Positions 15,926-45,000 of a stretch of 64,000 bases of DNA are shown here, in pieces. Within the stretch, counting starts at the first letter, position 1, and each line of letters starts with the position of its first letter. A model generated the notes under the pieces. It searched no databases. It saw only the letters and a program-made list of their open reading frames with translations, and was not told the DNA's origin. The position numbers and the translations under genes are program-made. The DNA lies in the NCBI GenBank assembly GCA_034096865.1, contig JAWQFJ010017327.1:45001-109000 (forward strand). The letters are read 5' to 3'. The DNA is from Theodoxus fluviatilis (taxonomy: Eukaryota; Mollusca; Gastropoda; Cycloneritida; Neritidae).

Positions 15926-17360
15926 TTAAGGAAAATATTCGTCAGCTACGAAAACAGAGGGCGCAGGATTGTCATTGGTGTTTGGCGTTGGCCTCGCAAC
16001 AGGAAGGTTCAGTTCTTGTCTGTTTAACGTTTGTCCGTTACGTGTTTTCGAAAAAGCGCCTCCATCACTTCCTCTGCCCGCACTGACGACATCTACTAAA
16101 GTGAAACAATAATTGACGTCACAGGCTGTCATGCGAATGATGCTGAGGAACTTTTTGTAGCTGAAGAATTCTGACATAGATTTCGGCGGTGCCTGCACGG
16201 AAATGTGTTTCCCATCTAGTGCACTGATACTATGGGAGGAAATTCCATTTTTGCAACAAACAAACAAACAAACAAACACACACACACACACCAATTAAAC
16301 AAGAAGGGCAAAGCCCATACGTCTCACATGCTTGACCTTGACCTTTATATGACCTTGACCTTCAGGTGACCTTCAAGATCAAGGTCAAACAACTAAACCT
16401 AGCAATGACATCATACACTAAGAAATGCTTTACACATTTTTCCTACCAAAATACATGTGACCTTGACCCAAGGTCAAGGTCATCCAAGGTCATGCAACAC
16501 AAAGCTGTTAATTCAAGACATAGGAAGCACAATGGTGCTTATTGGCACTTTCTACCATGAGATATGGTCACTTTTAGTGGTTCACTACCCCATTTTGGTC
16601 ACATTTCATTAGGGTCAAAGTGACCTTGACCTTGATGATATGTGAACAAATGTGTCTCATGATGAAAGTATAACATGTGCCCCACACAATTATTAAGTTT
16701 GAAACAGTTATCTTTTATAGTTCAGGGTCAGGGTCACTTCAAAATATGTATACAATCCAACTTTGAAGAGCTCCTGTGACCTTGACCTTGAAGCAAGGTC
16801 AACAAAACTGGTATCAAAAGATAGGGCTTGCTTTGACCTATATACCATATATAGGTGAGGTATCCAATCTCAAAAACTTCAGAGAAAATTGAGAAAATGT
16901 GAAAAATGACTGTTTTTTAGACAACATTTATGGCCCCTGCGACCTTGACCTTGAAGCAAGGTTAAGTCACTATGTATGTTTTTTGAGGCCTTGTCATCAT
17001 ACACCATAATGCCACATTTGGTATTGATAGACTTAATAGTCTCCGAGAAAAATCCAACGTTAAAGTTTTCGGACGCCCGGACGCCCGGTCCGGACGCCCG
17101 GTCGCCCGGACGCCCGGACGGAAGAAAAGGGTGAGTACATAGACTCACTTTTGCTTCGCATGTGAGTCAAAAAAGGGCAATGATTTCCCAATCTCGGTGC
17201 TGCGGTAGACGGTTCAGATACTGCCCTCGCATGTCTTGCCAGATTGCCCGACAGGTCTCACGTATCATGAAACAAAGTCCTCGGTACACGGAAGATAATA
17301 GGCACAGATGCTTGGGAAACACCAAATGCCAATTATCTGTCAAAACAAAAACAAAAACTT
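15926..17360 (-). pseudogene. HARBI1-like (PIF/Harbinger) transposase relic split by a HINE
   Basis: On the minus strand, sequence right of the inserted element reads LAFGVSQASVPIIFRVPRTL and, after a frame change, RETCRAIWQDMRGQYLN then PQHRDWEIIA. Left of the insertion it resumes as SISALDGKHISVQAPPKSM, then NYCFTLVDVVSAGRGSDGG and FVADEYFP followed by a stop. Conserved LDGKH, DV-S-GR-SDGG and VAD-xFP elements are the DDE_Tnp_4 catalytic signatures of HARBI1-type proteins. Frameshifts, a premature stop after VADEYFP and the 871-bp insertion show it is dead. Neither the Myb-like partner nor the terminal repeats were found. Confidence 0.8.
16300..17170 (-). mobile_element. Helentron-like HINE, copy 1 (subfamily A)
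   Basis: Minus-strand copy with both ends intact (CAAGAAGGGC on the left, GTGAGTCAA on the right). It is inserted in the middle of the HARBI1-like coding sequence. GTTT and GT microsatellites lie next to its left end. Confidence 0.9.
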
Positions 17361-21227: not shown

Positions 21228-22058
21228 TTGACTCACATGCAAAGCAAAAGTGAGTCTATGTACGCACCCGTGTCGTCCGTCCGGGCGTCCGTGAAAAACT
21301 TTAACGTTGGATTTTTCTCAGAGACTATTAAGTCTATCAACACCCAATTTGGCATGGTGGTGTATGATGACAAGGCCTCAAAAAACATACATAGTGACTT
21401 GTCCTTGCTTCAAGGTCAAGGTCGCAGGGGCCATAAATGTTGTCTAAAAAAGTCATTTTTCACATTTTCTCAATTTTCTATAAAGTTTTTGAAATTGGAT
21501 ACCTCACCTATATATGGTATATAGGGCAAAGTAAGCCCTATCTTTTGATACCAGTTTGGTTGTCCTTGCTTCAAGGTCAAGGTCACAGGAGCTCTTCAAA
21601 GTTGGATTGTATACATATTTTGAAGTGACCTTGACCCTGAACTATGGAAGATAACTGTTTCAAACAAAAAAAATTATGTGGGGCACATGTTATACTTTCA
21701 TCATGAGACACATTTGGTCACATATCAAGGTCAAGGTCACTTTGACCCTTATGAAATGTGACCAAAATGGGGTAGTGAACCACTAAAAGTGACCATATCT
21801 CATGGTAGAAAGTGCCAATAAGCACCATTGTGCTTCCTATGTCTTGAATTAACAGCTTGTGTTGCATGACCTTGGATGACCTTGACCTTGGATGACCTTG
21901 ACCTTGGGTCAAGGTCACATGCATTTTGGTAGGAAAAATGTGTAAAGCATTTCTTTGTGTATGATGTCATTGGTAGGTTTAGTTGTTTGACCTTGACCTT
22001 GAAGGTCACCTGAAGGTCAAGGTCAAGCATGTGACTCGTATGGGCTTTGCCCTTCTTG
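21228..22058 (+). mobile_element. Helentron-like HINE, copy 2 (subfamily A), reference description
   Basis: The family starts TTGACTCACATGCGAAGC. The first bases fold as GACTCAC...GTGAGTC around an inner TGC-GAA-GCA stem. Near the 3' end GCATGTGAGTC is the inverted copy of GACTCACATGC, but it lies 21 bases from the end, so the inverted repeats are asymmetric. Those last bases contain the hairpin GGGC-TTT-GCCC and finish CTTCTTG. Comparison with empty sites shows insertion between T and T without duplication. The body is non-coding and packed with TCAAGGTCA in both directions. These are the published hallmarks of Helentron-derived HINE/DINE-1 elements; replication would depend on a Rep/helicase protein encoded elsewhere. 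This copy lies in intron 1. Confidence 0.88.
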
Positions 22059-23079: not shown

Positions 23080-23254
23080 ATGGCAGAGAATGGAGAAGAC
23101 ATGGAATTGAACGAAGAGGAATTGCTTGGTGAGGGTGACGAGACCTCTGGAGGTGATGGCTCTGTCAATGGCTATGCAGAGGATCATCAGAAGCTTCTTG
23201 ACTATGGCATTGACAAAATAGTAGCTGCTGAGCTCGTAAAAATCTACAAAACAG
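23080..23254 (+). CDS. SYNCRIP: hnRNP Q/R coding exon 1
   Basis: The acceptor TTCTTTGCAG ends at 23067, leaving 12 untranslated bases before ATG. This start is chosen because it gives MAENGEDMELNEEELLGEG, like the acidic N-terminus of the family, and because the sequence upstream is intron. It ends ACAG|GTAAGA with one base carried over. Confidence 0.93.
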
Positions 23255-26200
23255 GTAAGAGGTGTTGAGAATTGTGCCACTTTGCAATGATTAGATGAAC
23301 AAAGGTCATTTGAGGTTCAATCTAATTTCATGCTCCACATTCGAGTTGTAAATTTAAGGATGTGGTCGTCTGTATTGGAAGTTACTGTTGATTATCATTG
23401 CTCCCTGTCTCCTCCACATGACATTGAGGAATAGCTGCCTTCATAGCTTGACAGTTGCTCAGTTTTGGAAAAGTAGAGCCAGCTCACACTTGTGATAGGT
23501 GGCATGGGCTTATTGGGAATGGCAGGAAGGATGAAATGTAATGATAGGATATTGTTCATCAAAATCTATATCTTGTCACCCAAGCAACTTGAAGTTAGTC
23601 CTCTTTGCCTCACAATGTCTCGAACCATTTGCCTCAGTTCTCATCAACATAAAAAAACTTGTTCTGACCCTCCTGATGTGGAAAGCTTGTGCTTTTATTC
23701 TTCCCAGAAAAGCTGCTTCCATCTGATCTGGATTCAAGGGCTCTTGATGCGCTGAAGGAGTTCAATTCTGATGATGCCATCCAAGTTCTGAAAAACTTTT
23801 GCGAATCCAACCTTGAGCATGTGGGCAACAAGAGTGCCTTCCTCTGTGGCCAGATGAAGACCTTTCGCCAGATGAGCAAGCAGGGTGGAACAACAACATC
23901 TGGCAAGGGCCCAGATGAAGCAAAGCTGAAGGTAAGCAATTCTTGATGCTGAACAAGAGGTAATGCTTTTTTGACTCACATGCGAAGAAAAAGTGAGTAT
24001 GTACTGAGCCGTGTCGTCCGTCCGTCCGTCCGGGCGTAAAAAACTTAAACGTTGGATTTTTCTCGGAGACTATTAAATCTATCAACACCAAATGTGGCAT
24101 GATGGTGTATGATGACAAGGCCTCAAAAAACATACATAGTGACTTGACCTTGCTTCAAGGTCTAGGTCACAGGAGCCATAAATGTGGTCTCAAAAACAGT
24201 CATTTTTCACATTTTCCCAATTTTCTCCCACGTTATTGAGAATGGCGACCTTAGCTACAAGTGGTATATAGGTCAAAGCAAGCCCTATCTTTTGATACCA
24301 GTTTGGTTGACCTTGCTTCAAGGTCAAGGTCACAGGAGCTCTTCAAAGTTGGATTGTATACATATTTTGAAGTGACCTTGACCCTGAACTATGGAAGATA
24401 ACTGTTTCAAACTTAATAATTATGTGGGGAACATGTTATACTTTCATCATGAGACACATTTGTTCACATATCATCAAGGTCACTTTGACCCTTATGAAAT
24501 GTGACCAAAATGAGGTAGTGAACCACTAAAAGTGACCATATCTCATGGTAGAAAGTGCCAATAAGCACCATTGTGCTTCCTATGTCTTGAATTAAGGGGG
24601 GACATGGCGTACAAAAACGGATTAATAGAAAATAAATCATAACTCAGCAAATATGAAAGCTATACTAATGAAATTTTATACAGAATACAAACACACTGGA
24701 AGGTATATTTAAACAAAATTTTATTGCTGAAGACTTAGTTGTTCTTGTGTTATAGCAAAATAACTGAAAAATAAACATACCAATTTTCTCCCCTCCGTGA
24801 AATTTTCATTAATAACCTTTTTATGATCAACAATGATTGTAAACAAAGAAGAAGGTCTATATTATTCAATAAGATATAATAAGTGGATTACTAACACTTC
24901 TAAATAATTTTAGTGAAATTTAGAACAAGTAACCAAAAAATGTGCTCCGGGCATAACATAATTAAATTTTTACAAAAATTAAGCAAATTCAGCTACACCT
25001 TTCTGATTGGTCTTATTGAATGCAATATTTATTCATAAATATACACACACAATTTCAGAAAGCTATCTCAATCCTAAGTGACTTTATTTTTGGGGAGAAA
25101 ATCACTACCGTAGAAATAAAAACCACATTATGAGAAAATTGACTTTAAAGTTTGAGAAAGATTAAACGTTAACTACAACTGAACCATAACAGATACAATT
25201 TAATAACATAACTCATTGAATGTGTCGTTTATTTGTTATCATTGTAGCAAACTTTCAACTTATTATCTTAATTCAAAATATCAGGATAATTAGGTGAAAA
25301 GCATCACCTGTAGCAAAACATTCCCGTTTTCTGTACGAATCGCGTAATCACGGCAACTTCCGCCGTGATAACAGCTTCGTTCAGTGCCGTGTCTGTAGAT
25401 GAGAACGCGATCGCTGTTGTATCACAACCTCCAGAGGCTGTTGACACGACTTAATTTCTTTTCTGGGCTTGCTTTTTCCGTCCATTTCTGCATCTTCCGT
25501 GGAATTGTCTCGATCGAGATAGCGCGAACTTTCGCGCGCTGTAAGCGCACTTCGGAAAGAACCGATGTTTGCTTCGGCGGCCGACGTTCAGGCCGGAAAC
25601 AGCCGAAGTACGGTTCGGCCGTTTCCGCCTACCACTTCCGCCAGTCGAAGTAAGGTTCGGCCGTTTCCGCCAGCCACTTCCGCCTGATCACGCTGTGATC
25701 ACGCACACAAGCGGCCAATCAGAGCCTAGCTGAGAGACAGGCCGTTATTTCGAAGCTTTCCATTGGTTTGCACTGGCATCCGATTTGTACTTCGTGTGCC
25801 TTCGGTAATTATTCTTCGGTACCGGAAACAGTTGCAACGTAAAGCCGGGAAATGAAGCTTCGATGCGATACCAAACATGTGGCGTTCTTTGGAAGGAAGA
25901 TGCTGAAACTAAGCTTTCAAATCTGTGCATTTTGGCTTCCTGGTTAGTACTTTTTTTTAATCTAGCGGTGGGTACCTTACAAAACAAATTGGTTTAAAAT
26001 ACTTTGAAACCTAAGCCAGCAAAATCGATCGCACACACGTGTAGCGGAGATGTTGTAGATTCCAAATCCGCGCTTAACACGAAACTCAATTTCTGAAAAT
26101 TTTTCGTGAAATTCTGCAGGCCGTGTCCCCCCTTAACAGCTTTGTGTTGCATGACCTTGGTCAAGGTCACATGTATTTTGGTAGGAAAAATGTGTAAAGC

Positions 26201-26972
26201 ATTTCTTAGTGTATGATGTCATTGGTAGGTTTAGTTGTTTGACCTTGACCTTGAAGGTCACCTGAAGGTCAAAGTCACATAAAGGTCAAGGTCAAGCGTG
26301 TGAGTGGTATGGGCTTTGCCCTTCTTGTTATTGATTCTACCTCGTGGTACATCAGATTCAAGGCCAGCTATGCAAGCGACTTGCGCATATCATTGGAGGA
26401 GTATGTGCGCCTCCCCACACGCACAGGGATGTTGAAAGGGCAAGTCTAATTTATCGTAACAAAAGATATGAAAATATTTTCACCTTGATTTCACTCTCTG
26501 CCACCTTGTTTTCATTCTCTGCTACTATTCTCCTAATTGCAAGGGTATGTTGATTCCTGATGTCAACTTTTCAAGCCACTAAAAGGCCACAATGTAAGAA
26601 TTTCACCTGTCACTCAGCAAAGAATCCTTTGAAGGCCAAAAACTGGCATGACAGTCAAGGGAGGTAACTCTCTTAAAACCTGATACAGTAGTCGCCGCTT
26701 ATAAAACACGCGGTTAATAAAAACGGCCGGTTTTTTTTTAATACAGTTGGTCTGGTCCGGATTTACATCGTTACTGATGGACATGGTCAACACGCAAACG
26801 GTTAATAAAAACGCCGCTTATTAAAAACATTTTTGTTCGATCCCAATGTGTTTTTAATAAGCGGCGACTACTGTGTTGCTATAGTCACGTTTCAGCATTC
26901 ACACTTCACCAAGTCATCGCTGTCGTTCCCACTGTTACCTTCACCCCCCACCCCTCTCTCTCTGTCTGACTT

Positions 26973-27066
<94 letters not shown>

Positions 27067-30000
27067 TCTCTCCCTCTCTCTCCCTCTCCCTCTCTCTCTC
27101 TCTCCCTCTCTCTCCCTCCCTCTCCCTCTCTCTCTCCCTCTCCGTACTGTTTACTATTTCTTATCTATCCATGGAGGACATGAGGAGAGAACCATGGGCT
27201 GGTAGTGGTAGGCATGAATGGCAATTCTACGTGTCATGAGTACCAGCTCAAGGAGTGGTGTCAGTGTGTGTGTGTTTATACATGTGCTATTAGTGTGCTG
27301 CTGTTGTCAAATACTCCATGTCATTGTTCTCTTGGAGTTGAAGAGAGAGGGCTATGGGGTGGTAAAATCTGGGATGGATGGTCATACTCACAGTCCCAGC
27401 TCCAGACTAGCACAGCTCCATGCTAGGCTGGCCGTTCAGAACTGTGGACAGCAACTGGTGTATGTCGCTATGTTGTGCTGTCTTGTGGCAGCACAATACT
27501 CTAGTACACCCACATGTATTCTCTACAAGTAATAGGCCATGTGCATCATTCATGTACATGGTAGTTGAAAACAATACCATTAGGCCATGTGCATACATGA
27601 AGAAATGAGTGTGTTGATGGATCTCTCTCCAATTTTCCCCATAACATTGTACCCGTAGTGATTGTGGCATTCCTTTTGATTTGCAACTTTACAACCAACC
27701 AGTTCCCCACAAACAGAATGTGAAATCCCAACCTAAATCTGCTATGAACTCTGCTCTCTGCCCAGTCAGTCATTCAACACAGGAGAAGTTTGATTTTCCT
27801 GTAACTCAATGAAGTCAACTGAGCACCTTATGACGACATGTTTTTCGCAATAAACTGTACACATTAGAAACATGCAGATATAGAACTGTACCAAAAAACC
27901 CCAAATAAGCAAACTAAATATATAACGGTCAGGACATCCTACAACTGACAAATGAAGTAGCTGAAGCCAGAAAAGTTTTGAATTGAGCAAGGCTAGGCTG
28001 CCATTACGGCACTCACTGGTCACAACTGCTGTCCAACTGACATGAACAGTAAGACGTTCATATCAGGAGGACATTCAACAGAACACTGCTCTTAGGACAT
28101 TCCAGCTTTATATTTCCCATGGAAATAGCACAGCTGCCAGAAAATTGCCTTTTTCGTGCACATGCATAACATATTTTTCAACTTGGAAGTGCAATATTTT
28201 CAGTGAGTACGGTACAGTTGCCAGAAACGTGTCCACATTTGATTAGGCCGTATGTATTGGTGCCGTTGTTTGCTTCACTATGGCAAGTCATTTGCAGGGT
28301 CTAGGCTAACCACATGCTCTTAGGATAAAGAAAATTGGTGGTCATAAAGAGTCAGGTGACGTTGAATACACTCACAGTCCCAGCTCCAGACTAGCACAGC
28401 TCCATGCTAGGCTGGCCGTTCAGAACTGTGGACAGCAACTGGTGTATGTCGCTATGTTGTGCTGTCTTGTGGCAGCACAATACTCTAGTACACCCACACA
28501 TATATTCTCCAAGTAATAGGCCATGTGCATCATTCATGTGGGCTTCATGATGGTGATATTTGCTGATGTGTAATTGGCACTGTCTATTGACTTGTCTTCT
28601 GGAAAGCCATATCAGAAGGGTCTGATGTTCGAATGGAAGGAAGGCTGTGGAGTGGTTTTTGCTCTTAGATGCTGCTTTTTCTGTGATGAAATATGACGGG
28701 TTTGAAAAAGTGGAAATGGGTGATTGCATTTGTATATGAACATGAATGAAATGCAAAAGTATTCCTAGTTTGTAACCCACATTAACATTTTCTCATAATT
28801 ACCTTTTAATTCTCAATGTCTTGGATAGAGTGTATGCGTGTGCATATGTGTGTAATGAATTGACAGGGCAAAAATGAATGCCAATAGATTGTTTGCTTTA
28901 CTACAGGCAAGTCATTTGCAGGTTTAGGCTAAACACATGCCCATAGGACAAAGGAAACTGGTTGTCATAAAGAGTCAGGTGACGTTGAATACACTCACAG
29001 TCCCAGCTCCAGACTAGCACAGCTCCATGCTAGGCTGGCCGTTCAGAACTGTGGACAGCAACTGGTGTATGTCGCTATGTTGTGCTGTCTTGTGGCAGCA
29101 CAATACTCTAGTACACCCACATGTATTCTCTACAAGTAATAGGCCATGTGCATCATTCATGTGGGCTTCATGATGGTGATATTTACTGATGTGTAATTGG
29201 CACTGTCTACTGACTTGTCTTCTGGAAAGCCATATCAGAAGGGTCTGATGTTCGAATGGAAGAAAGGCTGTGGAGGGGTTTTTGCTCTTAAATGCTGCTT
29301 TTTTGACTCACATGCGAAGCAAAAGTGAGTCTATGTACTCACCCGTGTCGTCCGTCCGGGCGTCCGTGAAAAACTTTAACGTTGGATTTTTCTCGGAGAC
29401 TATTAAGTCTATCAACACCCAATTTGGCATGATGGTGTAGGATAAGGCCTCCAAAAAACATACATAGTGACTTGTCCTTGCTTCAAGGTCAAGGTCAAGG
29501 TCGCAGGGGCCATAAATGTTGTCTAAAAAACAGTCATTTTTCACATTTTCTCAATTTTCTCTGAAGTTTTTGAGATTGGATACCTCACCTATATATGGTA
29601 AATAGGGCAAAGTAAGCCCTATCTTTTGATACCAGTTTTGTTGACCTTGCTTCAAGGTCAAGGTCACAGGAGCTCTTCAAAGTTGGATTGTATACATATT
29701 TTGAAGTGACCTTGACCCTGAACTATGGACGATGACTGTTTCAAACTTAATAATTATGTGGGGCACATGTTATACCTTCATCATGAGACTCATTTGGTCA
29801 CATATCATCAAGGTCAAGGTCACTTTGACCCTTATGAAATGTGCCCAAAATGGGGTAGTGAACCACTAAAAGTGACCAATCTCATGGTAGAAAGTGCCAA
29901 TAAGCACCATTGTGCTTCCTATGTCTTGAATTAACAGCTTTGTGTTGCATGACCTTGGATGACCGGATGACCTTGACCTTGGGTCAAGGTCACATGTATT

Positions 30001-33000
30001 TTGGTAGGAAAAATGTGTAAAGCATTTCTTAGTGTATGATGTCATTGGTAGGTTTAGTTGTTTGACCTTGACCTTGAAGGTCATCTGAAGGTCATCTGAA
30101 GGTCAAGGTCATATAAAGGTCAAGGTCAAGCGTGTGAGTCGTATGGGCTTTGCCCTTCTTGTCTGTGATTTAATATGACGAGTTTGAAAAAGTGGAAATG
30201 GGTGATTGCATTTGTATATGAACATGAATGAAATGCAAAAGTATTCCTAGTTTGTAACCCACATTAACATTTTCTCATAATTACCTTTTAATTCTCAATG
30301 TCTTGGATAGAGTGTATGCGTGTGCATATGTGTGTAATGAGTTGACAGGGCAAAAATGAATGCCAATAGATTGTTTGCTTCACTATGGCAAGTCATTTGC
30401 AGGGTCTAGGCTAAACACATGCTCATAGGACAAAGGAAACTGGTTGTCATAAAGAGTCAGGTGACGTTGAATACACTCACAGTCCCAGCTCCAGACTAGC
30501 ACAGCTCCATGCTAGGCTGGCCGTTCAGAACTGTGGACAGCAACTGGTGTATGTCGCTATGTTGTGCTGTCTTGTGGCAGCACAATACTCTAGTACACTG
30601 ACAATGTGTTCCTTGTCTGGTGTGCCTCACCAGACTCTGCTCTCTACATGAGTTGTTTATCACTTGTTCTTGCATTTACATGAGGTGCATCCACTCAGTG
30701 CCACTACAATGTAACTGTGGTTCCAGTGGAGTGCATGCAATATCCTCCTTGAAAGAAGGTTTCAATTATCAGGTTTGTGAAGATAAAAAGGATTTTAGAA
30801 ATGGCATGGCTGGGAGTTGTTACAACTGGAAAACTTGGGGCTAGTTAGACATGCCATGATTTCTCTTGTGCAGGAGATCCTGGACAGGACGGGCTATTCC
30901 CTTGATGTGACCACAGGACAGAGGAAGTATGGTGGACCCCCGCCCGACATGGACCCCACACCACCAGGAGCAGGCCATGAGGTATGTGTGTGTATATGTA
31001 GCAGTCCCCAAGGTTGTGTATGCAGCAGTCCCCTAGGTGTGTGTATATGTAGCAGTCCCCTAGGTGTGTGTGTGCAGCAGTCCCCTAGATGTGTGTGTAA
31101 GTGTGTGTGTGTAGCCGTCTTGTGTGTGTGTATGAAGCAGTCCCCTAGGCGTATGTTAGTAGCAGTCCCCTAGGTGTGTGTATAGCAGTCCCATAGGTGT
31201 GTGTGTATAGCAGTCCCCTTAGTGTGTGTGTAGCAGTCCCCTAGGTGTGTGTGTATGGCAGTCCCCTCCATATGGCCATGAAATGGCTCTTTGTGTCAGT
31301 CTGGGGCTGACCCTTGTTTTCCCAGATGTATTTTCTGGCCTCAAGCTTTGCAATCTGTAGAGAGTCTCATCCTGTGCTGTTCCATTTTGTTGTCAATTCA
31401 GGTGTTGTACACGGGGTTGATTAGTTTGATACATGTATGTCTAATTTGTGACAAGTGCATACACCATGTGTCAGTGAATAAGTTTTGAATCGTATCGTAG
31501 TAGTTTGCTGAGCACTGCAGTATTTGGATATCTTTTCCCATTCAGTTTAGACGTTTGAATGCGTGGATGGTTATTTCTAGACCGGACTCTTTGTAGCACT
31601 GCCAGTGATGATCATGAGTTAGTGCTTGCAGGCCTGTGCGTGCAACTTTAGTAGCTTCTTGAGTGAGTGAGGCAGTCACGCTGTTACTTCATGTTGCAGA
31701 TCTTCTGTGGGAAGATTCCCCGTGACATCTATGAGGACACGCTGATTCCTCTGTTTGAAAAGTGCGGCAAGGTCTGGGACCTGCGGCTCATGATGGATCC
31801 CACCAAGGGCCAGAACCGTGGCTACTGCTTTGTCACCTTTTGTGACAAGGATGGCGCCCGTGAGGCTGTGTCACAGGTGTTTAGCTCCTCTCTTGCACTC
31901 TCTCTTCAACCTTCATCCCTTTCTTCAGAGCTCCAGTCCTCCAGAAATTATCCTTTTAATTTGATGTTGAAATTTATATACAGAAATGGTAAAGACTTTT
32001 TACTTTTGGTAATGGGAGTTGGGATTTTTGAAAAGATTCTACAGAATTTTGGTTCCTTAAAACCTGCCTGATTTTTCAATCTAGATTATGTTTTCTTTCA
32101 GCTGGACAATTACGAAATCAGAAAAGGAAAGTTCCTGAAGGTCAATGTCTCAGTAGCCAATCTCAGATTATTTGTGGGGAATATTCCTAAGTCCAAGACA
32201 AAAGACGAAATCAAAGATGAATTCGGCAAGCGGACAGGTACATGGTGAATCTGTTTTACTCTTTGGGAAGTGAAGCAGAGGTATGGTGAATGCTAAAACC
32301 TTGCTTGCAGAAGGCACCACAGAAGGAATAGTAATGTTATTCATCATTATCTTGCCAGGTGAATTATGAAAATTGAGAGTTTGCCTATATATATGGATTG
32401 GTCCCAGTTAGGAAGACTGTAAGAAAAGGTAGTGCAGCTTGTTTTCCATTTGCCTGGGTTGCCTTCTGGAGCAGCAGGTTTATGCATTTCCAATGAACCT
32501 CTGCTTTCAAATTGTAATCGCCAGCATTCAGCCAGTAATTTCACAAGCAGCAAATTTATCTTGATCTTGATCAGACTTTCATTAAATTGATCTTCAGCTG
32601 GCTCATGTGAAGCAGAAAGTACTTTGAACTGAAACTCTTTATCACAGCCTTCTTGAATGATACAGTGCAACATGTTCGTTTATTCAATCCTTTATTCATT
32701 CACATAGTTCCATGCTTTGTATAATTTCTTTCTGCATTTGAATATGCTCAATCATCTGTTATCCATCAATTGAATGTGTGCACATCGATGCAAATGTCAA
32801 GTATGAATGTTTACATGGTTTAGGTAAGTGTGATGCATGTACATGTTTACCTGCTTGCGCGTGTGTGTGTGTGTGTTCAAACCCTTTTGGGTTTCAGCTT
32901 TGTAAGAGGAATGCCTGCTGAGAGGATACGATGCATGTACTAAAATGGTTATGGTGGGTACCTTGTGTGCAGTTCACAAGACTGAAAATGTATGCTTGCT

Positions 33001-36000
33001 TCACTTTGTAAATTTTTTTACTCACATGCGAAGCAAAAGTGAGTATGTACTCACCCATTTCGAGCGTCCGGGCGTCCATTTAAAACTAACGTTGGATTTT
33101 TCTAGGAGACTATTAAGTCTATCAACACCCAATTTGGCATGATGGTGTATGATGACAAGGCCTCAAAAAACATGCATAGTGACTTGTCCTTGCTTCAAGG
33201 TCAAGGTCGCAGGGGCCATAAAATTAATGTTGTCTAAAAAATAGTCATTGTTCACATTTTCTCAATTTTCTCTGAAGTTTTTGAGATTGGATACCTCACC
33301 TATATATGGTATATAGGGCAAAGTAAGCCCTATCTTTTGATATCAGTTTGCCATACCTTGCTTCAAGGTCAAGGTCACAGGAGGTCTTTAAAGTTGGATT
33401 GTATACATATTTTGAAGTGACCTTGACCCTGAACTATGGAAGATAACTGTTTCAAACTTAATAATTATGTGGGGAACATGTTATACTTTCATCATGAGAC
33501 ACATTTGTTCACATATCATCAAGGTCACTTTGACCCTTATGAAATGTGACCAAAATGAGGTAGTGAACCACTAAAAGTGACCATATCTCATGGTAGAAAG
33601 TGCCAATAAGCACCATTGTGCTTCCTATGTCTTGAATTAAGGGGGGACATGGCGTACAAAAACGGATTAATAGAAAATAAATCATAACTCAGCAAATATG
33701 AAAGCTATGCTAATGAAATTTTATACAGAATACAAACACACTGGAAGGCATATTCAAACAAAATTTTATTGCTGAAGACTTAGTTGTTCATGTGTTATAG
33801 CAAAATGACTGAAAAATAAACATACAAATTTTCTCCCCTCCGTGAAATTTTAATGAATAACCTTTTTATGATCAGCAATGATTGTAAACAAAGAAGAAGG
33901 TCTATATTACGCAATAAGATATAATAAGTGGATTTCTAACACTTATAAATAATTTTAGTGGAATTTAGAACAAGTAACCAAAAAAAGTGCTCCCGGCATA
34001 ACATGATTACATTTTTACAAAAATTAAGCAAATTCAGCTACATCTTTCTGAATGCTCTTATTGCATGCAATATTCATTCATAAATATACACACAAAATTT
34101 CAGAAAGCTATCTCAATCCTAAGTGACTTTATTTTTGGGGAGAAAATCACTACCGTAGAAATAAAAACCACATTATGAGAAAATTGACTTTAAAGTTTGC
34201 GAAAGATTAAACGTTAACTACAACTGAACCATAACAGATACAATTTTATAACATAACTCATTGAATTTGTCATTCATTTGTTATCATTATAGCAAACTTT
34301 CAACTTATTATCTTAATTCAAAATATCAGGATAATTAGGTGAAAAGCATCACCTGTAGCAAAACATTCCCGTTTTCTGTAAGAATCGCGTAATCACGGCA
34401 ACTTCCGCCGTGATAACAGCTTCGTTCAGTGCCGTGTCTGTAGATGAGAACGCGATCGCTGTTGTATCACAACCTCCAGAGGCTGTTGACACGACTTAAT
34501 TTCTTTTCTGGGCTTGCTTTTTCCGTCCATTTCTGCATCTTCCGTGGAATTGTCTCGATCGAGATAGCGCGCGCTGTAAGCACACTTCGGAAAGAACCGA
34601 TGTTTGCTTCGGCGGCCGACGTTCAGGCCGGAAACAGCCGAAGTACGGTTCGGCCGTTTCCGCCTACCACTTCCGCCAGTCGAAGTACGGTTCGGCCGTT
34701 TCCGCCAGCCACTTCCGCCTGATCACGCTGTGATCACGCACACAAGCGGCCAATCAGAGCCTAGCTGAGAGACAGGCCGTTATTTCGAAGCTTTCCATTG
34801 GTTTGCAGTGGCCTCCGATTTGTACTTCGTGTGCCTTCGGTAATTATTCTTCGGTACCGGAAACAGTTGCAACGTAAAGCCGGGAAATGAAGCTTCGATG
34901 CGATACCAAACATGTGGCGTTCTTTGGAAGGAAGATGCTGAAACTAAGCTTTCAAATCTGTGCATTTTGGCTTCCTGGTTAGTACTTTTTTTTAAATCTA
35001 GCGGTGGGTACCTTACAAAACAAATTGGTTTAAAATACTTTGAAACCTAAGCCAGCAAAATCGATCGCACACACGTGTAGCGGAGATGTTGTAGATTCCA
35101 AATCCGCGCTTAACACGAAACTCAATTTCTGAAAATTTTTCATGAAATTCTGCAGGCCGTGTCCCCCCTTAACAGCTTCGTGTTGCATGACCTTGGATGA
35201 CTTTGACCTTGGGTCAAGGCCACATGTATTTTGGTAGGAAAAATGTGTAAAGCATTTCTTTGTGTATGATGTCATTGCTACAGACCTGTTTACTCTCCCG
35301 ATTTTAGCGGGAGACTCCCAATTTCAGACCCTATTTCCCGACCTCCCGCTAGCTTCGTAAATCTCCCGAATTTTTTTTTCACCGATCTCCCGAAAATGAA
35401 AAATTTTGAAAGGTTTATTTCGTTTCCGAAGCGTTTACATGACGATCCGAACTTTCTACTACGCCACTGAAGGTCGTTCTGCCGATCTGCAGTACAATTT
35501 GTTTGATTGGTTGAGTCAGGGCCTTTGTCCAATCGAGAGCCAGTTTACAATCTGGAATAGCCGCCATTTTGCTTGACCGATCCGAATGATGGCGTCGATT
35601 GAAAAGTCAATGAGAAAGAATCGCGGAACCGATTCTGAATCCGACAGTGAGTGTGACACAGAGGATGAGAAAAGCAAGTCCACTGATGTCAGAAGCAGAA
35701 AGAGAGTAAAGTACAACGAAAGTGGAAGGCTGAGTGAAAATCCGAATACCCGGCATTTCGCCCATCGTCTAAATCGCAATCACGCGGGTTTTGCACGTTC
35801 TGCAAGAAAGACATCAACGTGAGCCACGGAGGCAAGAATGAGAGAGAGAGAGAGAGAGAACTTGTGCGCGCACGAGAGAGAGAACTTGCGCGTGCGCGAG
35901 AGAGAGAGAGCGCGCGAGAGAAAGAGCGCGCGCGTGCGAGAGAGAGAGCGAGCAAGCGAGAGAGAGAGAGAGAGCGAGCAAGCGAGAGAGAGAGAGACAG

Positions 36001-39000
36001 CGCGCGCGCACGAGAAAGAGAGTGAGCGCCGGCGCGCGGAAGAGAGAATTTGACTTTTCGCCTCCCTGATCAGAGATGGGACTTATTGGCGTTTCAGCTG
36101 ATTTCTGAGTTTTTTATTCCACTTTCAGCTGATTTGTATTCAATTGTTATGAAGTTTGTGACCTGGGATGGTACACATATCTAAAAATAAAAATCTCCCG
36201 CTTTTTATTGAAATCTCCCGATTTTTGAGTCGCCATCTCCCTATTTTGCACAACTTAAGGTAAACAGGTCTGTTGCTAGGTGTAGTTGTTTTGACCTTGA
36301 GGGTCACCTGAAGGTCAAGGTCAAGCATGTGAGTCGTATGGGCTTTGCCCTTCTTGTTTTCTCTTGTTTTTCCTCTATGCATCTATTCAGGGGTGTTCAT
36401 GAGTTTCTTTGTTGACTAGCTCACCAGGATAGTTACACGCATAATTTACCCGCCTGCTAGATTTTTCACTAGCCAGCCTTTTGTACTCAAATGGCTTAAA
36501 ATTTGAATGCTCATGGTTTCATAATATTCAAAATGTCTAACTCATTGTTAACGAGCCTGTCGAATGGGAGACTGCAGTATTTAGCTAGAGGGTAATTTTA
36601 ACTTGCTGTGGGTGAGTGGATTTGAACACCCCAGCAAATGCTCAAGAAGTGGTGTGCATGCATGAGTGCAGATTGATAGGATCATTCATGTACGAGTATT
36701 TTGAATGTTGGTATGCCAGGAGTAAGCATTTTTTTTGTGTCACTGCAAGTGTGTGTTGATGTTTGCAAGTGTGTGTGTGATGATACAGTGTTACTTGTCT
36801 GAATGAAATTTTACATTTAGACCTCCATAATGGTATGTGCAAAGAAATAATTGTTGGTGTCTTATGATATGCAAGTCTGTGTGGTGAGGAGTTTGTAGAG
36901 AGCAAAGATATTGATATACAAACCATGTATGCAAGTGCAAATGTTTCATGGCTGAATGCCTGAACTGCCTGTATAAGCTGTGTTGATGTCTTGATTCATG
37001 CTGTCCTCTGTGGACCCTACTGACCTGATATTGCTCTGGCAGAGGGGCTGATGAGGGTCATCATCTATGGAGTGGCTGACAACCCCAAACTGCAGAACCG
37101 AGGCTTTGCTTTTCTGGAATACGACTCCCATAAATCTGCTTCCACTGCCAAGAGGAAACTGGGGGCTGGCCGCACAAGGGTTTGGAACTGTGACATCATT
37201 GTTGACTGGGCTGACCCACAGTCAGACCCCGAGGAGGAGATCATGGATAAGGTGAGTATTCTTTCCAAGGCAGTTTTTTATATAGAAAGTTGGCATAAAT
37301 GTATATGAATTTCAAACACTACTTGGAGTATGAAAGTATGCACTGTTTTCTCTCTCCAGTTGGGGTGAAATTGAGTTAATTTTATCAAGTGATGGACTAA
37401 GTATTGATAGGTGGAGAGATAAATGTATCTGGTTCCAATTAGCAGCTTAAAGTACAACTACACCTTAGTGCTCTGTTTTCGTGTTGCAGGTGAAGGTACT
37501 GTACGTGAGGAACTTGACCTCTGATGTGACTGAAGAATCTTTGAAGGAGAAATTTGAGGAGCATGGCAAGGTGGAGCGGGTGAAGAAGATCAAGGACTAT
37601 GGGTTTGTCCACTTTGAGGATCGTGACCAGGCAATCAAGGCTATGGATGCCCTGAATGGCAAGGTGAGAGTTATTGGCTTTGTCTCCCCATTTTTGACTC
37701 ACATGCGAAGCAAAAGTGAGTCTATGTACTCAGCCGAGTCGTCCGTCCGTCCGGGCGTAAAAAACTTAAACGTTGGATTTTTCTCGGAGACTATTAAGGC
37801 AAGACACGGGTCGAAAAGTTGGGAAAATTTCATATCTGGACGTTTTTGAGATAACATCAGTTTTGAGTAGTTCAAACACTTGCAAATGCCCCCACGTGTT
37901 TTTTTCGACCTGTCATTCGATAATTAGTTGAATAAAATGGCTTTGAAAAACATCACTCCTCGTAAAAAACGTTAAAAACGTCATTGATGCATCGTATTTT
38001 ATGACTTTTGGAAAAATTGTAACTTTCGATCTATTCTACGAAGAGGTTCACGCCCGGTACCGTTGGAAAGCTCGTCTTTTCGATCGAGCACAGCAAGGGA
38101 AATAACTCCGCCAACTATAGTGGTCTATTTTTAGTTGATGATTTCAAACAGCGTACACAGGGTTGTTTGGAAACTCACTAGCCAATCATTGAGCTTAGAG
38201 AGGGAATTCCACTTGTTTCAACCAATCAGAGACTCCAAAGCGAGGATTCCCTGGCCCACAATGCATCGTAAACATGGCTGCCGCTTCAACGCTAATTCTC
38301 TCAGTTAGTTTATGTTTTGCACCAAATCGAATAAATTCGACTTCAATCAAACAATCAGAGAATGCCCATGAGTGAATAAACTCAACATTATGCCGCGACC
38401 GAAAAATAGTGGGCGAAGAGAGCAGCTTTCGGCTGCACGCACCTCGAAAATACTTCGCGGTCAAGGTCGAAAGTCTAGTTCTACTTCGTCAACGCCTGCG
38501 TTGACAGTGCTATCGCGATCGCTGCCTCCTCGTCCCTCCATCTCAACTGCCTCGATTCCGGAAGAAACTTCAAACGCATCGGCATCAAGGAGGAAGATAC
38601 AGATGATGCAGGCAGAAGCAAAGCAGCCGATTGAAACCGATCATAAGTGGGTCAACGTGCACTTGACTTAGATCAGCTGAGTGAACTAATGAACGATGTT
38701 CTTTGCCCGAACTGTTTTCGGTCTGGTCTCACCTTCAGCATACTATACGATAAAAACAATGGCTTAGCCAGCAAACTTTGCTTGAAATGTGGAGCCTGTG
38801 ATGCCAGAAGAATGAAGAAAGCTAATGTGGCAGCCTCTGTTCAGGCATAGCAACAGCGCCTACACTAAGTGGCTTCATGCCTTCAACTCAAGGCATCAGA
38901 AGAGGAGGCTTCAGGAGGAAGAAGAAGGGGAAACCTATGGTGCTGGAATGGCAAACTGACTTGTTGTTGACTCATTCACAGCATGTGTCTCTCTGAAGTT

Positions 39001-42000
39001 GCCTTTATTGACCTTGGCATTTCCTGTGTAGTAGTAGGGCTGATCCTTTCCTCTTGAGCATGAACTTTTCCATCCCTGCATTTTTTTGTACTGGGGACTG
39101 ACTCACTGCACAAAACACTAAAAACTGGAAACTGTAAGTTCAGTTTCATTTTTTAGCATGTGTAGTCCTGCTGGATGAATGTATGAATAAATGAAACAAG
39201 TTTTAGCCATGATGGATAGTTTTAGAAGGACTTATGCATGACTAAAAGTTGTTTTTGCCATTTTCTCAAAATGTGTTTTTTTCATAGAGTTCAAATCAAT
39301 TAGTTACTCAAACTCATCACAGGATGATGATGATGACTTGTAATTTTCCAGGTATGTTACATGTATAATAATTTATGAACATACAGACACTTTTTGCTGT
39401 GAACTGATTATTTGGCCAGATATGATTTTTTTTCTTTGATGTTGAACCTACTTTATCTGCAATTCGGATATTGATGTGGAAGCAATAAGTACATTTTTTT
39501 ACTTTTTGCATTACAAACATAATCTTCTGTACATTTAAAGATAAAGAGTGTACAATTTTAATGCAAAAAGAATTTTCAAGAAATATCAAGTAGTTAAGAA
39601 GTTATAGAAATTTAAAAAGATACAGAAATTTGCATATTTTTGCATGTTAGGCGGCCATTTTGGATTACCCATAATTTTAATTACTGTCAAACTTTGATGT
39701 TTTGATTTACTGTTATGAGTTCTTTCATGCCAATGAAACAAAAAAATTTCAATAAACATATTTAAAAATTTCATGCTTCCTAGTAGTGTCTTGCCTTAAG
39801 TCTATCAACACCAAATGTGGCATGATGGTGTATGATGACAAGGCCTCAAAAAACATACATAGTGACTTGTCCTTGCTTCAAGGTCAAAGTCACAGGAGCC
39901 ATAAATGTGGTCTCAAAAACAGTCATTTTTCACATTTTTCACATTTTCTCCCACGTTATTGAGAATGGCGACCTTAGCTACAAGTGGTATATAGGTCAAA
40001 GCAAGCCCTATCTTTTGATACCAGTTTGGTTGACCTTGCTTCAAGGTCAAGGTCACAGGAGCTCTTCAAAGTTGGATTGTATACATATTTTGAAGTGACC
40101 TTGACCCTGAACTATGGAAGATAACTGTTTCAAACTTAATAATTATGTGGGGCACATGTTATACTTTCATCATGAGACACATTTGTTCACATATTATCAA
40201 GGTCAAGGTCACTTTGACCCTTATGAAATGTGACCAAAAGGGTGTAGTGAACCACTAAAAGTGACTATATCTCATGGTATAAAGTGCCAATAAGCACCAT
40301 TGTGCTTCTTATGTCTTGAATTAACAGCTTTGTGTTGCATGACCTTGGATGACCTTGACCTTGGGTCAAGGTCACATGTATTTTGGTAGGGAAAATGTGT
40401 AAAGCATTTCTTTGTGTATGATGTCATTGGTAGGTTTAGTTGTTTGACCTTGACCTTGAAGGTCACCTGAAGGTCAAGGTCATATAAAGGTCAAGGTCAA
40501 GCATGTGAGTCGTATGGGCTTTTCCCTTCTTGTTTTTCTTCAGGCTGGATTGGACTTGGGCTCTTGAACTGGCTGCGAGTTAGTTCTTGAAACAGCTTGT
40601 ACAGTTTTTCATGAAGGTTTGTAAGGGCCTGGTGCTGATGGGCTTGAGAAAGATAGTTATTATTGAAGTATGTGTGTGATTTCTCTCTGATACACTTGCC
40701 CAGAGGAGTGAACCCTCTGACATGGTTGGAATATCATTTGCTCTGTGGCTCAGTGACAAGTCATTGCGTGTGATTAATCGTTTGAATGAATGGTTTTGAG
40801 AATCTGAGGTTTGGGAAAGTGGTCAGAGATAAGTTGTCAAAGTAATGTCAAGATCCCTAGAAGGTATTTTGTTGGGGAGATGTATAATGAGTTTGCTTTG
40901 TGCTACAGCTACTGGGTGGGAGGAACATTGAAGTGTCCCTGGCCAAGCCCCCCACAGAGAACAAGAAGAAGGAGCAACGCAAGCGGGAGCAGGACGGCCG
41001 CAAGATGATGTACATGATGAACCCCCGCGGAGGCCCACCCTATGGAGGAGGAGGAGGGTAAGTCCCATGTGGAGGTCTGGGCCAGAATGGGTTCTGTGTG
41101 AACTGAACTAGCTGTCAGCTTTAACCTGTGTGGTGTGAACAGTGTGATTATCTGCATTTGTGCTGCGAGTTGGTTGTATTGGCGATTCATTTGCATAGTC
41201 ATCTTCATGCCTAAACCCTTAGCATCGCTCAGCCTTCAGCTGAATCTGGGACAAACAGTACTCTACTGAGATATTGAAAACTGCGGTCATACAGTTTCCT
41301 ATGACGATAACTCAGGACATCAGGTTTCCGACCTACGTGCAGTTCTTGCACTCCTCGCACTCCTCCTTGCACTCCTCCTTGCACTCCTCGCACTCCTCCT
41401 TGCATATGTTTTGACCACTGGTGTTTCTTCCTCAAGCATACACACCATTTTTCAATAGAAGTCAGCTCGTCACAAAAATGCTATGCAAACTGCATAAGTA
41501 CATGCACACTGATTGGCTGGCAGTGCTGCGCATGGTTAATTCTTGAGCTGTGTGAGAATGAAGAAAGGGAGAGAAAAGGATGGGATGCGTTGTTCTGTCC
41601 CACAGGATAAGTATGAGATCAGGTCAGGGTTGCCTCGAGCACAGTTCGGGTCCTTGTCCACAGTCGGTTGTGGAGGAGGCGGCTACAAACTGTGGACAGC
41701 AATGTTGCCTGATGCGGACTTCACCCATCTCTAGGGTGGTGACTCTGGCCTCGGGCACTACATTCCCTTCTGTTTCATTCCCCTGTGAGTTCGGGGTGAG
41801 AATTGACCCACCGCGTCTCCCTACGCGATTCGTAAGAGGCGAATGACTAGGGACACCGTGACTTGATTAGCGTTTACTCTAAACTGTGCTAGTAATTTTC
41901 GTGCTAAATGGCCTTACATAGCCTACAAGCCTGATAGGCTGTAAAACACTGTCCATCCATCCATCCATCCATCCATCCATCCCTTTTTTGACTCACATGC

Positions 42001-45000
42001 GAAGCAAAAGTGAGTCTATGTACTCACCCGTGTCGTCCGCCGGGCGTCCGTGAAAAACTTAAACGTTGGATTTTTCTCGGAGACTATTAAGTCTATCAAC
42101 ACCCAATTTGGCATGATGGTGTATGATAAGGCGTACAAAAACATACATAGTGACTTGACCTTGCTTCAAGGTCAAGGTCGCAGGTGCCGTAAATGTTGTC
42201 TCAAAAACAGCCATTTTTCACATTTTCCCAATTTTCTCTGGAGTTTTTGAGATTGGATACCTGACCTATATATGGTGTATAGGGCAAAGTAATCCCTATC
42301 TTTTGATACCAGTTTGATTGACCTTGCTTCAAGGTCAAGGTCACAGGAGCTCTTTAAAGTTGGATTGTATACATATTTTGAAGTGACCTTGACCCTGAAC
42401 TATGGAAGATAACTCATCCAAACTTCATAACATTGTAGTACACATGTTATACTTCCATCATGAGACACATTTGGTCACATATCATCAAGGTCAAGGTCAC
42501 TTTGACCCTTATGAAATGTGACCAAAATGGGGTAGTGAACCACTAAAAGTGACCATACCTCATGGTAGAAAGTGCCAATAAGCACCATTGTGCTTCCTAT
42601 ATCTTTGTGTTGCATGACCTTGGATGACCTTGACCTTGGGTCAAGGTCACATGTATTTTGGTAGGAAAAAGTTCTTAGTGTATGATGTCATTGGTAGGTT
42701 TAGTTGTTTGACCTTGAAGGACACCTGAAGGTCAAGGTCATGTAAAGGTCAAGGTCAAGCATGTGAGTCGTATGGGCTTTGCCCTTCTTGTCTTGTCACG
42801 TCGTAGCTGTAGGTAAAGCTAGTAAATCATTTCATTCCTTGGGGTTTGCTGTAGTACATGAAGATGGCACAGCATGTCATACTGTTTATCATTTATAGGC
42901 ATAATCGAAATAGAAGTGTGCATGTTGCATACATCATGCTGAAAGCTAGAGGAAATATTCCATTCATGCTAAAGAATCATTCTTGTTGTTTTGTTTGGTG
43001 AAGCGAGTTGAATAACGAGTGGAGAGTAAAAGGGTTACTTGCTGCATTATCCAACCCTCATTTCTTGTGCAGATGGGATGACTTCTGGGTCCCCCCTCAG
43101 AGGTACGGACCTCCCATGCCCCCCAGGGGTCCCATCCGAGGCGGTGGTGGCAGCAGATTTCATCCACCTCCTCCTCCTCCACGGGGATTTGGTGGCGGTG
43201 GTGAGTGTCTGCCTCATTCAACTCCCCTGATTGCTTCAGCAATTGTCATAGGGTCATCTGTTATCCTCTTGAGCCAGACAAACTAAGGGATTTCCCAACC
43301 TTATCCTACTTTTTGCTGCTGTTAGTCCAGTTTTGAGTGTGACTGCTGCAATAAGGTGCCTTGTGTGATGTAACGAGTTCTTTTGGGGAAGCTATGTTTG
43401 GTTGGCTGGATGTATGGCCTGTCTGCTATATGTGGACACCTCAATCAGAGCTTGGCATACTTGTAAGAACTATTTGCCCTTGCATTGCAGAAATTGACCT
43501 CCATATGAATAATGACCTCTGGTGCTTACTGTGCCAACTGACTTCATGTAATCTTTTGTGAGCATGAGCGCACGTATGTGCCTGACAGTATCTTGGATGT
43601 GTACACGTCGGTGCAAGGTGTGCTTATTGACTCACATGCGAAGCAAAAGTGAGTCTATGTACTGAGCCGTGTCGTCCGTCCGGGCGTCCGGGCGTCCGTA
43701 AAAAACTTAAACGTTGGATTTTTCTCGGAGACTATTAAGTCTATCAACACCAAATGTGGCATGATGGTGTATGATGACAAGGCCTCAAAAAACATACATA
43801 GTGACTTGACCTTGCTTCAAGGTCAAGGTCACAGGAGCCATAAATGTGGTCTCAAAAACAGTCATTTTTCACATTTTCCCAATTTTCTCCCACGTTATTG
43901 AGAATGGCGACCTTAGCTACAAGTGGTATATAGGTCAAAGCAAGCCCTATCTTTTGATACCAGTTTGGTTGACCTTGCTTCAAGGTCAAGGTCACAGGAG
44001 CTCTTCAAAGTTGGATTGTATACATATTTTGAAGTGACCTTGACCCTGAACTATGGAAGATAACTGTTTCAAACTTAATAATTATGTGGGGCACATGTTA
44101 TACTTTCATCATGAGACACATTTGGTCACATATCGTCAAGGTCACTTTGACCCTTATGAAATGTGACCAAAATGGGGTAGTGAACCACTAAAAGTGACTA
44201 TATCTCATGGTAGAAAGTGCCAATAAGCACCATTGTGCTTCCTATGTCTTGAATTAACAGCTTTGTGTTGCATGACCTTGGATGACCTTGACCTTGGGTC
44301 AAGGTCACATGTATTTTGGTAGGAAAAATGTGTAAAGCATTTCTTTGTGTATGATGTCATTGGTAGGTTTAGTTGTTTGACCTTGACCTTGAAGGTCACC
44401 TGAAGGTCAAGGTCATATAAAGGTCAAGGTCAAGCATGTGAGTCGTATGGGCTTTGCCCTTCTTGTGTGCAGTGTGTTCCTGCCCAAAGGTTGGATGGAG
44501 TACCTCAGCCAAGCATCGTCAGCCTGAGGGAATCAATTCTGTCTGACCAAGCTGCACTCTCTATTTGCTTTCAGACCCATTCTATGACGAGTTCTACGAC
44601 GACGACTACTACTTCGGGGGCTACGCTCCTGGTCCGATGCGCGGTGGGCGTCCAAGAGGTGCTGGTCCTCCCCCTGTAGGTAGAGTTCCGTAATCTGCTT
44701 TGTGGACTGCCTTAGGCCCCCTCCACTCCCTTGGGATGAACGAGCACCTAAATTTGATCCAAATTGATCCGTGGAAATTCAAAAAATCTGGCTCTGCTCG
44801 ATCCCATGGTTAAACGTGCTGTAAATGAGAAATGATTGATGCAAAGATGCCCAAAAGTTTTTTGGGTATTTTTTGAGAGCGTGTGTGATTAGATGTGATC
44901 TTGATTTTGTGCTCCTTTTTGCCCCCATTGTTGAAAATTCTTGTAACTTTTTATAGTGTGCATTCAACTTGACCCGTACTGCATTTCTGTGGAATCAAAA

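What the first reader, a model, noticed from the sequence alone, without database searches (positions are those of the whole stretch)
21228..22058. Eleven-copy HINE family with asymmetric terminal inverted repeats and hairpins at both ends
Copies at 16300, 21228, 23971, 29303, 33017, 37694, 41988, 43627, 56326, 58595 and 61658 all start TTGACTCACATGCGAAGC (TTTACTC in one copy) and end GGGCTTTGCCCTTCTTG. GACTCACATGC at the 5' end is inverted as GCATGTGAGTC, but set back 21 bases from the 3' end behind a hairpin. Helentron-derived HINE/DINE-1 elements show this same architecture. About 18 percent of the window (11.9 kb including nested inserts) lies inside these copies, so the family must be very abundant genome-wide.
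Basis: partly seen in the sequence, partly recalled or inferred. Interest (0 to 1): 0.75.

Follow-up and report, generated by a model that had tools for sequence, protein, structure and literature searches.

The report
Gene-sense-oriented Helentron-derived repeat family
The repeats are copies of a very abundant "hitch-hiking" jumping DNA whose full-length, protein-coding partner was found in the same genome, and the copies beside the genes I could recognise point the way the gene is read, which may reveal how such elements choose where to insert.

Summary
All 11 copies are there (8 on +, 3 on -), and the family has 13,868 exact 5' ends in the 965-Mb genome. The HINE reading holds too. Insertions go into T-runs without target-site duplication. 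A 9.3-kb element carries the same two ends around a protein with OTU, Helitron Rep and PIF1-helicase domains, plus an AP-endonuclease piece in another frame: a Helentron. Corrections: the copies span 25.4% of the window (14.0% HINE sequence), not 18%, and Rep lies antisense to the structural direction.
Beyond the finding, copies lie in the sense direction of host genes: six inside a SYNCRIP/hnRNP R-like gene in the window, and ten of ten recognised genes on ten contigs. Neighbouring copies share strand in 62 of 67 pairs (1-60 kb). Of four other repeat families, two show no strand runs, one is intermediate and does not follow HINE, and one, hAT-like, follows HINE, so selection is not excluded. 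Best guess (about 40%): insertion into the exposed sense strand of germline-transcribed genes. The family is ordinary; its strand rule is not.

The parts
16300..17170 (-). HINE copy, 871 bp
21228..22058 (+). HINE copy named in the finding, 831 bp, upstream of the first recognised coding exon of the SYNCRIP-like gene; 4.8% from consensus
23971..26327 (+). HINE copy with about 1.55 kb insert after consensus position 643; inside the SYNCRIP-like gene
29303..30161 (+). HINE copy inside the SYNCRIP-like gene; clean empty site at 28580-28779
33017..36356 (+). HINE copy with an insert after the same consensus position 643 and further extra DNA; inside the gene
37694..40532 (+). HINE copy with 2.0 kb insert near consensus position 115; inside the gene, close behind an exon
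41988..42790 (+). HINE copy inside the gene; 6.0% from consensus
43627..44465 (+). HINE copy inside the gene; nearly identical to consensus (0.24%)
56326..57135 (+). HINE copy downstream of the last recognised exon; clean empty site (inverted flank copy at 55897-56096)
58595..60461 (-). HINE copy with about 1.06 kb extra DNA before a second 3' end, inserted as one unit (3'-end bypass reading); empty sites at four places
61658..62502 (-). HINE copy, 845 bp
23083..48245 (+). span of recognised coding exons of a SYNCRIP/hnRNP R-like gene (RRM exon 31667-31879, others near 23677-23943, 30868-30981, 32105-32236, 37024-37305, 37487-37666, 40891-41058, 47898-48245)
   Evidence: tblastn with recalled human hnRNP Q, Pfam RRM, PDB hnRNP R / Syncrip, ORF scan (first and last exon by eye)

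Best explanation
These are copies of one HINE family: 851-bp non-coding deletion derivatives of a Helentron in the same genome that supplies Rep, PIF1 helicase and endonuclease. Shown: shared ends, T|T insertion without duplication, deletion-derivative structure. Inferred from known Helitron biology: a single strand, read 5'-TTGACTC...GGGCTTTGCCCTTCTTG-3', is peeled off by rolling-circle replication, ends at the 3' hairpin, and is joined into a T-run of exposed single-stranded target DNA. Shown for ten genes: copies near or inside genes carry this strand in the sense direction of the gene. Best guess for the cause (about 40%): the exposed target is the non-template strand of genes transcribed in the germ line, so insertion records transcription direction. 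The confidence below is for identity, mobilisation and the sense pattern, not for the cause.
For: Autonomous element C10001:187179-196508 with both HINE ends; its ends are 94% and 95% identical to the HINE consensus over 389 and 492 bp. Domains OTU, DUF6570, Helitron_like_N, PIF1; Exo_endo_phos_2 in a separate-frame piece. Two 1.26-1.31 kb copies keep Rep fragments between HINE ends. Empty sites; flanking T in 34-36 of 36 copies at the four nearest positions. Strand: neighbours alike in 100 of 112 pairs, 62 of 67 at 1-60 kb. Twenty-one HINE marks bracketed by exons of five genes, 21 of 21 sense. Genes recognised beside HINEs on ten contigs, ten of ten sense. Pfam scan of 125 ORFs on the HINE strand gave nine host families; 100 ORFs on the other strand gave transposon and low-complexity families plus one THAP hit. 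T-runs exceed A-runs on the sense strand only 1337:1117, so target composition cannot make the bias. Six of six exon-bracketed copies no more than 1.2% from consensus are sense.
Against: For the cause: a hAT-like repeat (K2), which should insert as double-stranded DNA, shows the same strand behaviour (22 of 25 neighbours, 16 of 17 with HINE), so a selective or other shared cause is possible. Replication direction was not tested. Exceptions exist: 12 of 112 neighbours differ, and in a 60-mer listing of copies on scattered contigs 6 of 8 neighbour pairs agree. The HINE listings are the first 100 places each, so the strand-run figures rest on 24 contigs. Only ten genes; four of them (C11, C13, C25, C33) came from stretches I chose because HINE strand was uniform there, and the C11 gene (DUF885) is below Pfam's cut-off. 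Three of eight stretches fetched that way (C18, C24, C1535) showed no recognisable host gene. Only one of four Helentron loci checked had both HINE ends.
Confidence: 0.85

Rival explanations
1. Helentron insertion is strand-neutral, and antisense copies inside genes are later lost by selection (cryptic splicing, premature polyadenylation, antisense transcription, or silencing of the host gene).
For: A hAT-like family, for which no single-strand target model applies, is also sense-biased. Orientation bias shaped by selection is discussed for other transposon classes (PMC3828378, PMC3446317, search listing only).
Against: Six of six exon-bracketed copies no more than 1.2% from consensus are already sense. 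The HINE consensus has no AATAAA/ATTAAA on either strand and no 3'-splice-like site on the antisense strand. The one K2 copy examined has more such signals on its sense than its antisense strand, the opposite of what purging predicts. Other repeats in the same stretches show no bias (54 of 102 pairs, 42 of 87 merged events; K3 7 of 14, K4 6 of 10 at 1-60 kb), though K1 neighbours agree in 14 of 19.
Confidence: 0.35
2. HINE strand follows replication-fork direction (insertion into the lagging-strand template, as for IS200/IS605), and genes tend to be co-oriented with forks.
For: Single-strand transposons IS608/ISDra2 behave so (PMC5371812, passages). Strand runs of up to about 180 kb occur (C7).
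Against: In the window the strand changes between 17.2 and 21.2 kb and between 57.1 and 58.6 kb, on either side of one gene with recognised exons at 23.1-48.2 kb. Ten of ten agreement with gene strand would need near-perfect gene-fork co-orientation.
Confidence: 0.15
3. Strand runs are produced by local tandem or segmental duplication of stretches already holding HINEs.
For: Some copies lie very close (11 of 112 pairs under 1 kb, all same strand).
Against: Copies in the window have different immediate flanks; empty sites are found for single copies; pairs at 10-30 kb still agree 21 of 25; other repeats in the same stretches do not agree.
Confidence: 0.05
4. MITEs of a DDE transposon with imperfect terminal inverted repeats.
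For: Short non-coding copies with inverted ends.
Against: No target-site duplication; same ends on a Rep/helicase element.
Confidence: 0.01

Closest known systems
HINE / DINE-1 elements and Helentrons (Thomas, Vadnagara and Pritham 2014, PMC4067079)
   Same: SubTIR 2 bases from the 5' end and set back from the 3' end, 3' palindrome, T|T insertion without duplication, deletion derivatives of a Rep-helicase-endonuclease element, Helentron Rep motif.
   Different: 3' subTIR is 21 bases from the end here (38-60 in the mite). Rep is antisense to the structural direction, as reported there for Helentron-Da-40 against the majority. Gene-sense orientation was not mentioned in the parts I read.
Cg_HINE elements of the Pacific oyster (PMC7492417, passages)
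   Same: HINE modules with 5' subTIR plus inner complement, tetranucleotide microsatellite (here GTCC), 3' palindrome, TT targets, no duplication.
   Different: The consensus here has no long satellite array in the middle; its autonomous partner was found, whereas the authors could link none to Cg_HINEs. No sequence comparison was made.
Helitron2 (as described in PMC4067079)
   Same: Asymmetric terminal inverted repeats and palindromes at both ends.
   Different: Helitron2 is described without endonuclease; a piece matching Exo_endo_phos_2 is present here.
IS200/IS605 single-strand transposons (PMC5371812, passages)
   Same: Single-strand target model and orientation that follows a strand-exposing process.
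   Different: Their orientation follows replication; here it follows gene strand. Unrelated enzymes (recalled).

Membership tests
HINE / Helentron | Subterminal inverted repeats, near the 5' end and set back from the 3' end | tested here: met
   (3' repeat exact in 6 of 11, one or two changes in 4, absent before the end in 1); consensus
HINE / Helentron | Palindrome near the 3' end | tested here: met
   GGGCTTTGCCC six bases from the end in 9 of 11 window copies, one mismatch in 2; not the predicted minimum-energy fold of the last 45 bases
HINE / Helentron | Insertion into T-rich DNA between T and T, no target-site duplication | tested here: met
   36 copies; empty sites
HINE / Helentron | Longer relative with same ends encoding Rep and PIF1 helicase | tested here: met
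   C10001:187179-196508
HINE / Helentron | AP endonuclease fused C-terminally to the helicase | tested here: inconclusive
   Exo_endo_phos_2 E 1.6e-6, over cut-off, in a piece in a different frame from the main ORF; weak Exo_endo_phos in the ORF itself. The frame is broken in the one copy read.
HINE / Helentron | Helentron-type Rep motif 2 (F/Y-x-R before it, S between G and P) | tested here: met
   FYRVEYQQRGSPHIH; criterion
HINE / Helentron | RPA ORF (found in many, optional) | tested here: inconclusive
   No RPA family in the long ORF or one further ORF; the rest of the element was not scanned
Canonical Helitron | 5' TC, 3' CTRR, A|T target | tested here: not met
   Ends TTGAC / CTTCTTG, T|T target; criterion in passages of PMC13286980
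Helitron2 | Rep/helicase without endonuclease | tested here: not met
   Endonuclease piece
DDE transposon MITE | Target-site duplication and DDE partner | tested here: not met

The most novel reading that the evidence does not exclude
Helentron integration is transcription-coupled: the rolling-circle single strand is captured by T-runs on the non-template strand of genes active in the germ line, so that more than ten thousand HINEs form a strand-resolved record of ancestral germline transcription.
Probability: 0.35. Interest if true: 0.85.

Novelty: new member of a known kind. Interest (0 to 1): 0.6.

Why it matters
How rolling-circle transposons of animals pick targets is poorly known (my judgement). 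A family that lies in gene sense wherever I could tell, already in little-diverged copies, gives a direct and simple test of whether they need single-stranded DNA exposed by transcription. If so, such families could be read as a map of germline transcription in any genome that has them. If selection is the cause instead, it is unusually strong for a short non-coding element.

Tried and rejected
Target composition as the cause of strand bias: T-runs against A-runs 1337:1117 on the sense strand, too small. Polyadenylation or splice hazards in the antisense strand: none found for HINE. Segmental duplication: flanks differ. Ends on other Helentron loci of the same Rep group: C930 shows a junction near a 5' end; C605 and C15793 showed no end of the element itself at the expected distance, so only one full partner is shown. 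Torsin exon on C10001 (same strand, 6.6 kb from the element) and a coiled-coil gene on C26 (no family above cut-off) agree but were not counted. An ORF resembling ATP synthase subunit h on C5 (E 0.007, below cut-off, same strand as its HINE) was not counted. A phage-record comparison of the window's hAT-like ORF found nothing. Literature: nine searches; in the titles and abstract starts listed I saw no paper on Helitron or HINE orientation relative to genes. That is a listing result, not a proof of absence.

Full report
Observation. Eight of the eleven have the exact 5' end. They span 16,261 bp, 25.4% of the window; HINE-homologous sequence in them is 8,957 bp, 14.0%. In the genome that holds the window (965 Mb, 19,668 contigs) the exact 18-mer 5' end occurs 13,868 times, about evenly on both strands, and the exact 21-mer 3' end 13,148 times.

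Anatomy. I collected 36 distinct full-length copies from the window and fetched loci. Thirty are 803-871 bp; their majority consensus is 851 bp, with divergences of 0.2-2.9% for 18 and 4.0-6.5% for 12. The 5' end TTGACTCACATGCGAAGCAAAAGTGAGTC folds into a hairpin; the predicted fold of the last 45 bases does not use the GGGCTTTGCCC stem. The left flank has T at -2 and -3 in 36 of 36 and at -1 in 34 of 36; the right flank begins with T in 34 of 36. The two flanks share at most 4 bases (2 of 36), which T-runs on both sides would give. Of 36 joined-flank queries, seven found a spanning match in held sequence; I aligned five of those. Three window copies give clean empty sites, the host sequence running through with nothing gained or lost at the junction (29303-30161; 56326-57135; 60461-58595 at four places). 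Two C7 copies lie in repeats with small differences at the junction. The other two were not aligned.

Autonomous partner. A Pfam Helitron_like_N search of the genome gave 18 places, which fall into groups by identity. One group has nine members. One of them, C10001:187179-196508, has TTGACTCACATGCAAAGC at one end and CAAGCATGTGAGTCGTATGGGCTTTGCCCTTCTTG at the other, 9,330 bp apart, with a 2,268-codon open frame between. Its outer 381 and 480 bp match the HINE consensus at 94% and 95%. The frame holds OTU, DUF6570, Helitron_like_N and PIF1. A piece at its end in another frame matches Exo_endo_phos_2 above its cut-off. Rep motif 2 reads FYRVEYQQRGSPHIH, which by the criterion of Thomas et al. 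(PMC4067079, section 7 read) is Helentron type. Rep is antisense to the structural 5'->3' direction in this element and in two 1.26-1.31-kb copies that carry Rep fragments between HINE ends (L053, L054). The same paper reports Helentron-Da-40 as such a case (passage). Of three further loci of the group checked near the expected end positions (C930, C605, C15793), none showed both ends.

Strand domains. In the first 100 listed places of each end pattern, merged to 136 marks on 24 contigs, neighbouring marks share strand in 100 of 112 pairs; without the two densest contigs 63 of 75. With the 5' list alone and distances of 1-60 kb it is 62 of 67. In a separate list of 95 copies with an exact 60-base 5' end, mostly one per contig, 6 of 8 neighbour pairs agree; the two that differ are 41 and 70 kb apart.

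Genes. In the window a SYNCRIP/hnRNP R-like gene lies on +, recognised exons 23,083-48,245, with six HINEs between its exons, all +; the flanking HINEs at 16.3-17.2 kb and 58.6-62.5 kb are -. On other contigs I recognised DNMT1-like (C2), CCT3-like (C4), SDE2 (C5), KHDC4 (C7), a family-B DNA polymerase (C1), DUF885 (C11), glutamate carboxypeptidase-like (C13), cadherin (C25) and SNX3/12-like (C33) exons. Pfam or PDB matches support them, all above Pfam's cut-off or clear in the PDB except DUF885 (best E 1.7e-4, below cut-off). Names such as DNMT1, CCT3 and POLA1 are my reading of the translations. In all ten genes the nearest HINEs are sense; in five of them 21 HINE marks lie between recognised exons, 21 of 21 sense (sign test for ten genes p = 0.002, for the five alone 0.06). 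C1, C2, C4, C5 and C7 came in contig order. C11, C13, C25 and C33 were among eight stretches chosen because HINE strand was uniform there; of the other four, C26 has a coiled-coil gene (also sense, not counted) and C18, C24 and C1535 gave no recognisable host gene.

Less eye-dependent test. A codon-score scan of held loci gave 337 candidate ORFs: 164 on the strand of the nearest HINE, 153 opposite, 20 without a HINE. The score was trained on exons already recognised, and for loci without a HINE of their own (L069, L072-L074) the strand came from the contig listing. I left out the window's ORFs (39 and 53) as the discovery case and scanned the other 125 and 100 with Pfam. The HINE-strand set hit 21 families, of which nine are host genes (DNA_methylase, SDE2, Cpn60_TCP1, DUF885, KHDC4 KH, TOR1A_C, DNA_pol_B, Cadherin, PX); the other twelve are transposon, low-complexity or weak. 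The opposite set hit five: Tc5 HTH, THAP, HTH_Tnp_4, DUF2457, NOA36. The THAP hit could be host or transposon; I did not resolve it. TOR1A_C lies 6.6 kb from the Helentron (L057) and was not counted as a gene hit.

Controls. Other repeats in the same stretches agree with the HINE-gene direction in 54 of 102 pairs between contigs (42 of 87 merged events); HINE pieces do so in 61 of 61, but there the direction was largely defined from HINE itself, so only the control figure is informative. Genome listings (first 100 places) of four other repeat words: neighbours within 60 kb on the same strand K1 14 of 19, K2 22 of 25, K3 18 of 29 (7 of 14 beyond 1 kb), K4 7 of 14 (6 of 10 beyond 1 kb); agreement with the nearest listed HINE within 60 kb K1 7 of 16, K2 16 of 17, K3 7 of 12, K4 6 of 13. 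So K3 and K4 are unbiased, K1 is intermediate but does not follow HINE, and K2 behaves like HINE. K2 is a 507-bp element with CAGGGTTCGTACAGGT inverted ends, hAT-like by my recall. One C7 HINE sits in a K2 T-run, which would tie the two, but other K2 copies lie hundreds of bases or more from a HINE. K2 is the main result against a Helentron-only cause.

Mechanism. Rolling-circle transfer of one strand and joining at T|T without duplication follow from known Helentron biology plus the empty sites. The sense bias cannot come from T-run composition (1337 T-runs against 1117 A-runs on the sense strand). It is present in little-diverged copies: six of six exon-bracketed copies no more than 1.2% from consensus are sense, among them two at 0.24% in the SYNCRIP-like gene and in SDE2. 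HINE has no AATAAA or ATTAAA on either strand. I therefore put insertion into the exposed sense strand of transcribed genes first (about 40%), selection second (about 35%), replication direction third (about 15%). [quoted passage not shown] Whether the genes concerned are transcribed in this animal's germ line was not tested.

Novelty. The family is a new member of a known kind (HINE/Helentron). In nine searches of the held library I saw no listed report of gene-sense orientation for Helitrons or HINEs; subscription papers are mostly not held. Papers seen: PMC4067079 (abstract, sections 6, 7, 15, passages), PMC7492417, PMC5371812, PMC13286980 and PMC10030826 (passages), PMC5717806 (abstract and outline); others in listings only.

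Noticed in passing
L010, L017, L028 and one search places: A 507-bp hAT-like repeat (K2, CAGGGTTCGTACAGGTCAT...) has strand runs like HINE (22 of 25 neighbours; 16 of 17 agree with HINE). Unexplained.
   Followed up: partly
window 58595-60461 (-): HINE followed by about 1.06 kb of other DNA and a second 3' end, inserted as one unit into a repeat: looks like 3'-end bypass and transduction.
   Followed up: partly
window 23971-26327 and 33017-36356: Both copies carry an insert of about 1.5 kb after the same HINE consensus position (643), so they may be one subfamily that moved with its cargo.
   Followed up: no
L053:875-2130 and L054:854-2164: HINE-ended copies of 1.26-1.31 kb that keep Rep gene fragments.
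   Followed up: partly
HINE consensus: Thirteen TCAAGGTCA sites in the consensus (9 and 4 on the two strands). By recall this is the extended half-site of ERR/SF-1 nuclear receptors, so the family may have spread many such sites.
   Followed up: no
window 13118-15394 (+): Open 758-codon frame with DUF4371 and hAT dimerisation domains: a transposase or a gene derived from one.
   Followed up: no
window 2700-5900: Long stretch of short tandem repeats open in several frames with strong T and C excess on +.
   Followed up: no
G000:C28:90944 (-): An antisense HINE mark in a + run lies 136 bp behind a K2 start, where K2 copies have an A-run; it may have followed the T-run of the other strand. Sequence not fetched.
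   Followed up: no
L039-L041, L049-L052, L055, L056: Further Helitron Rep groups in this genome, unlike the HINE partner.
   Followed up: no
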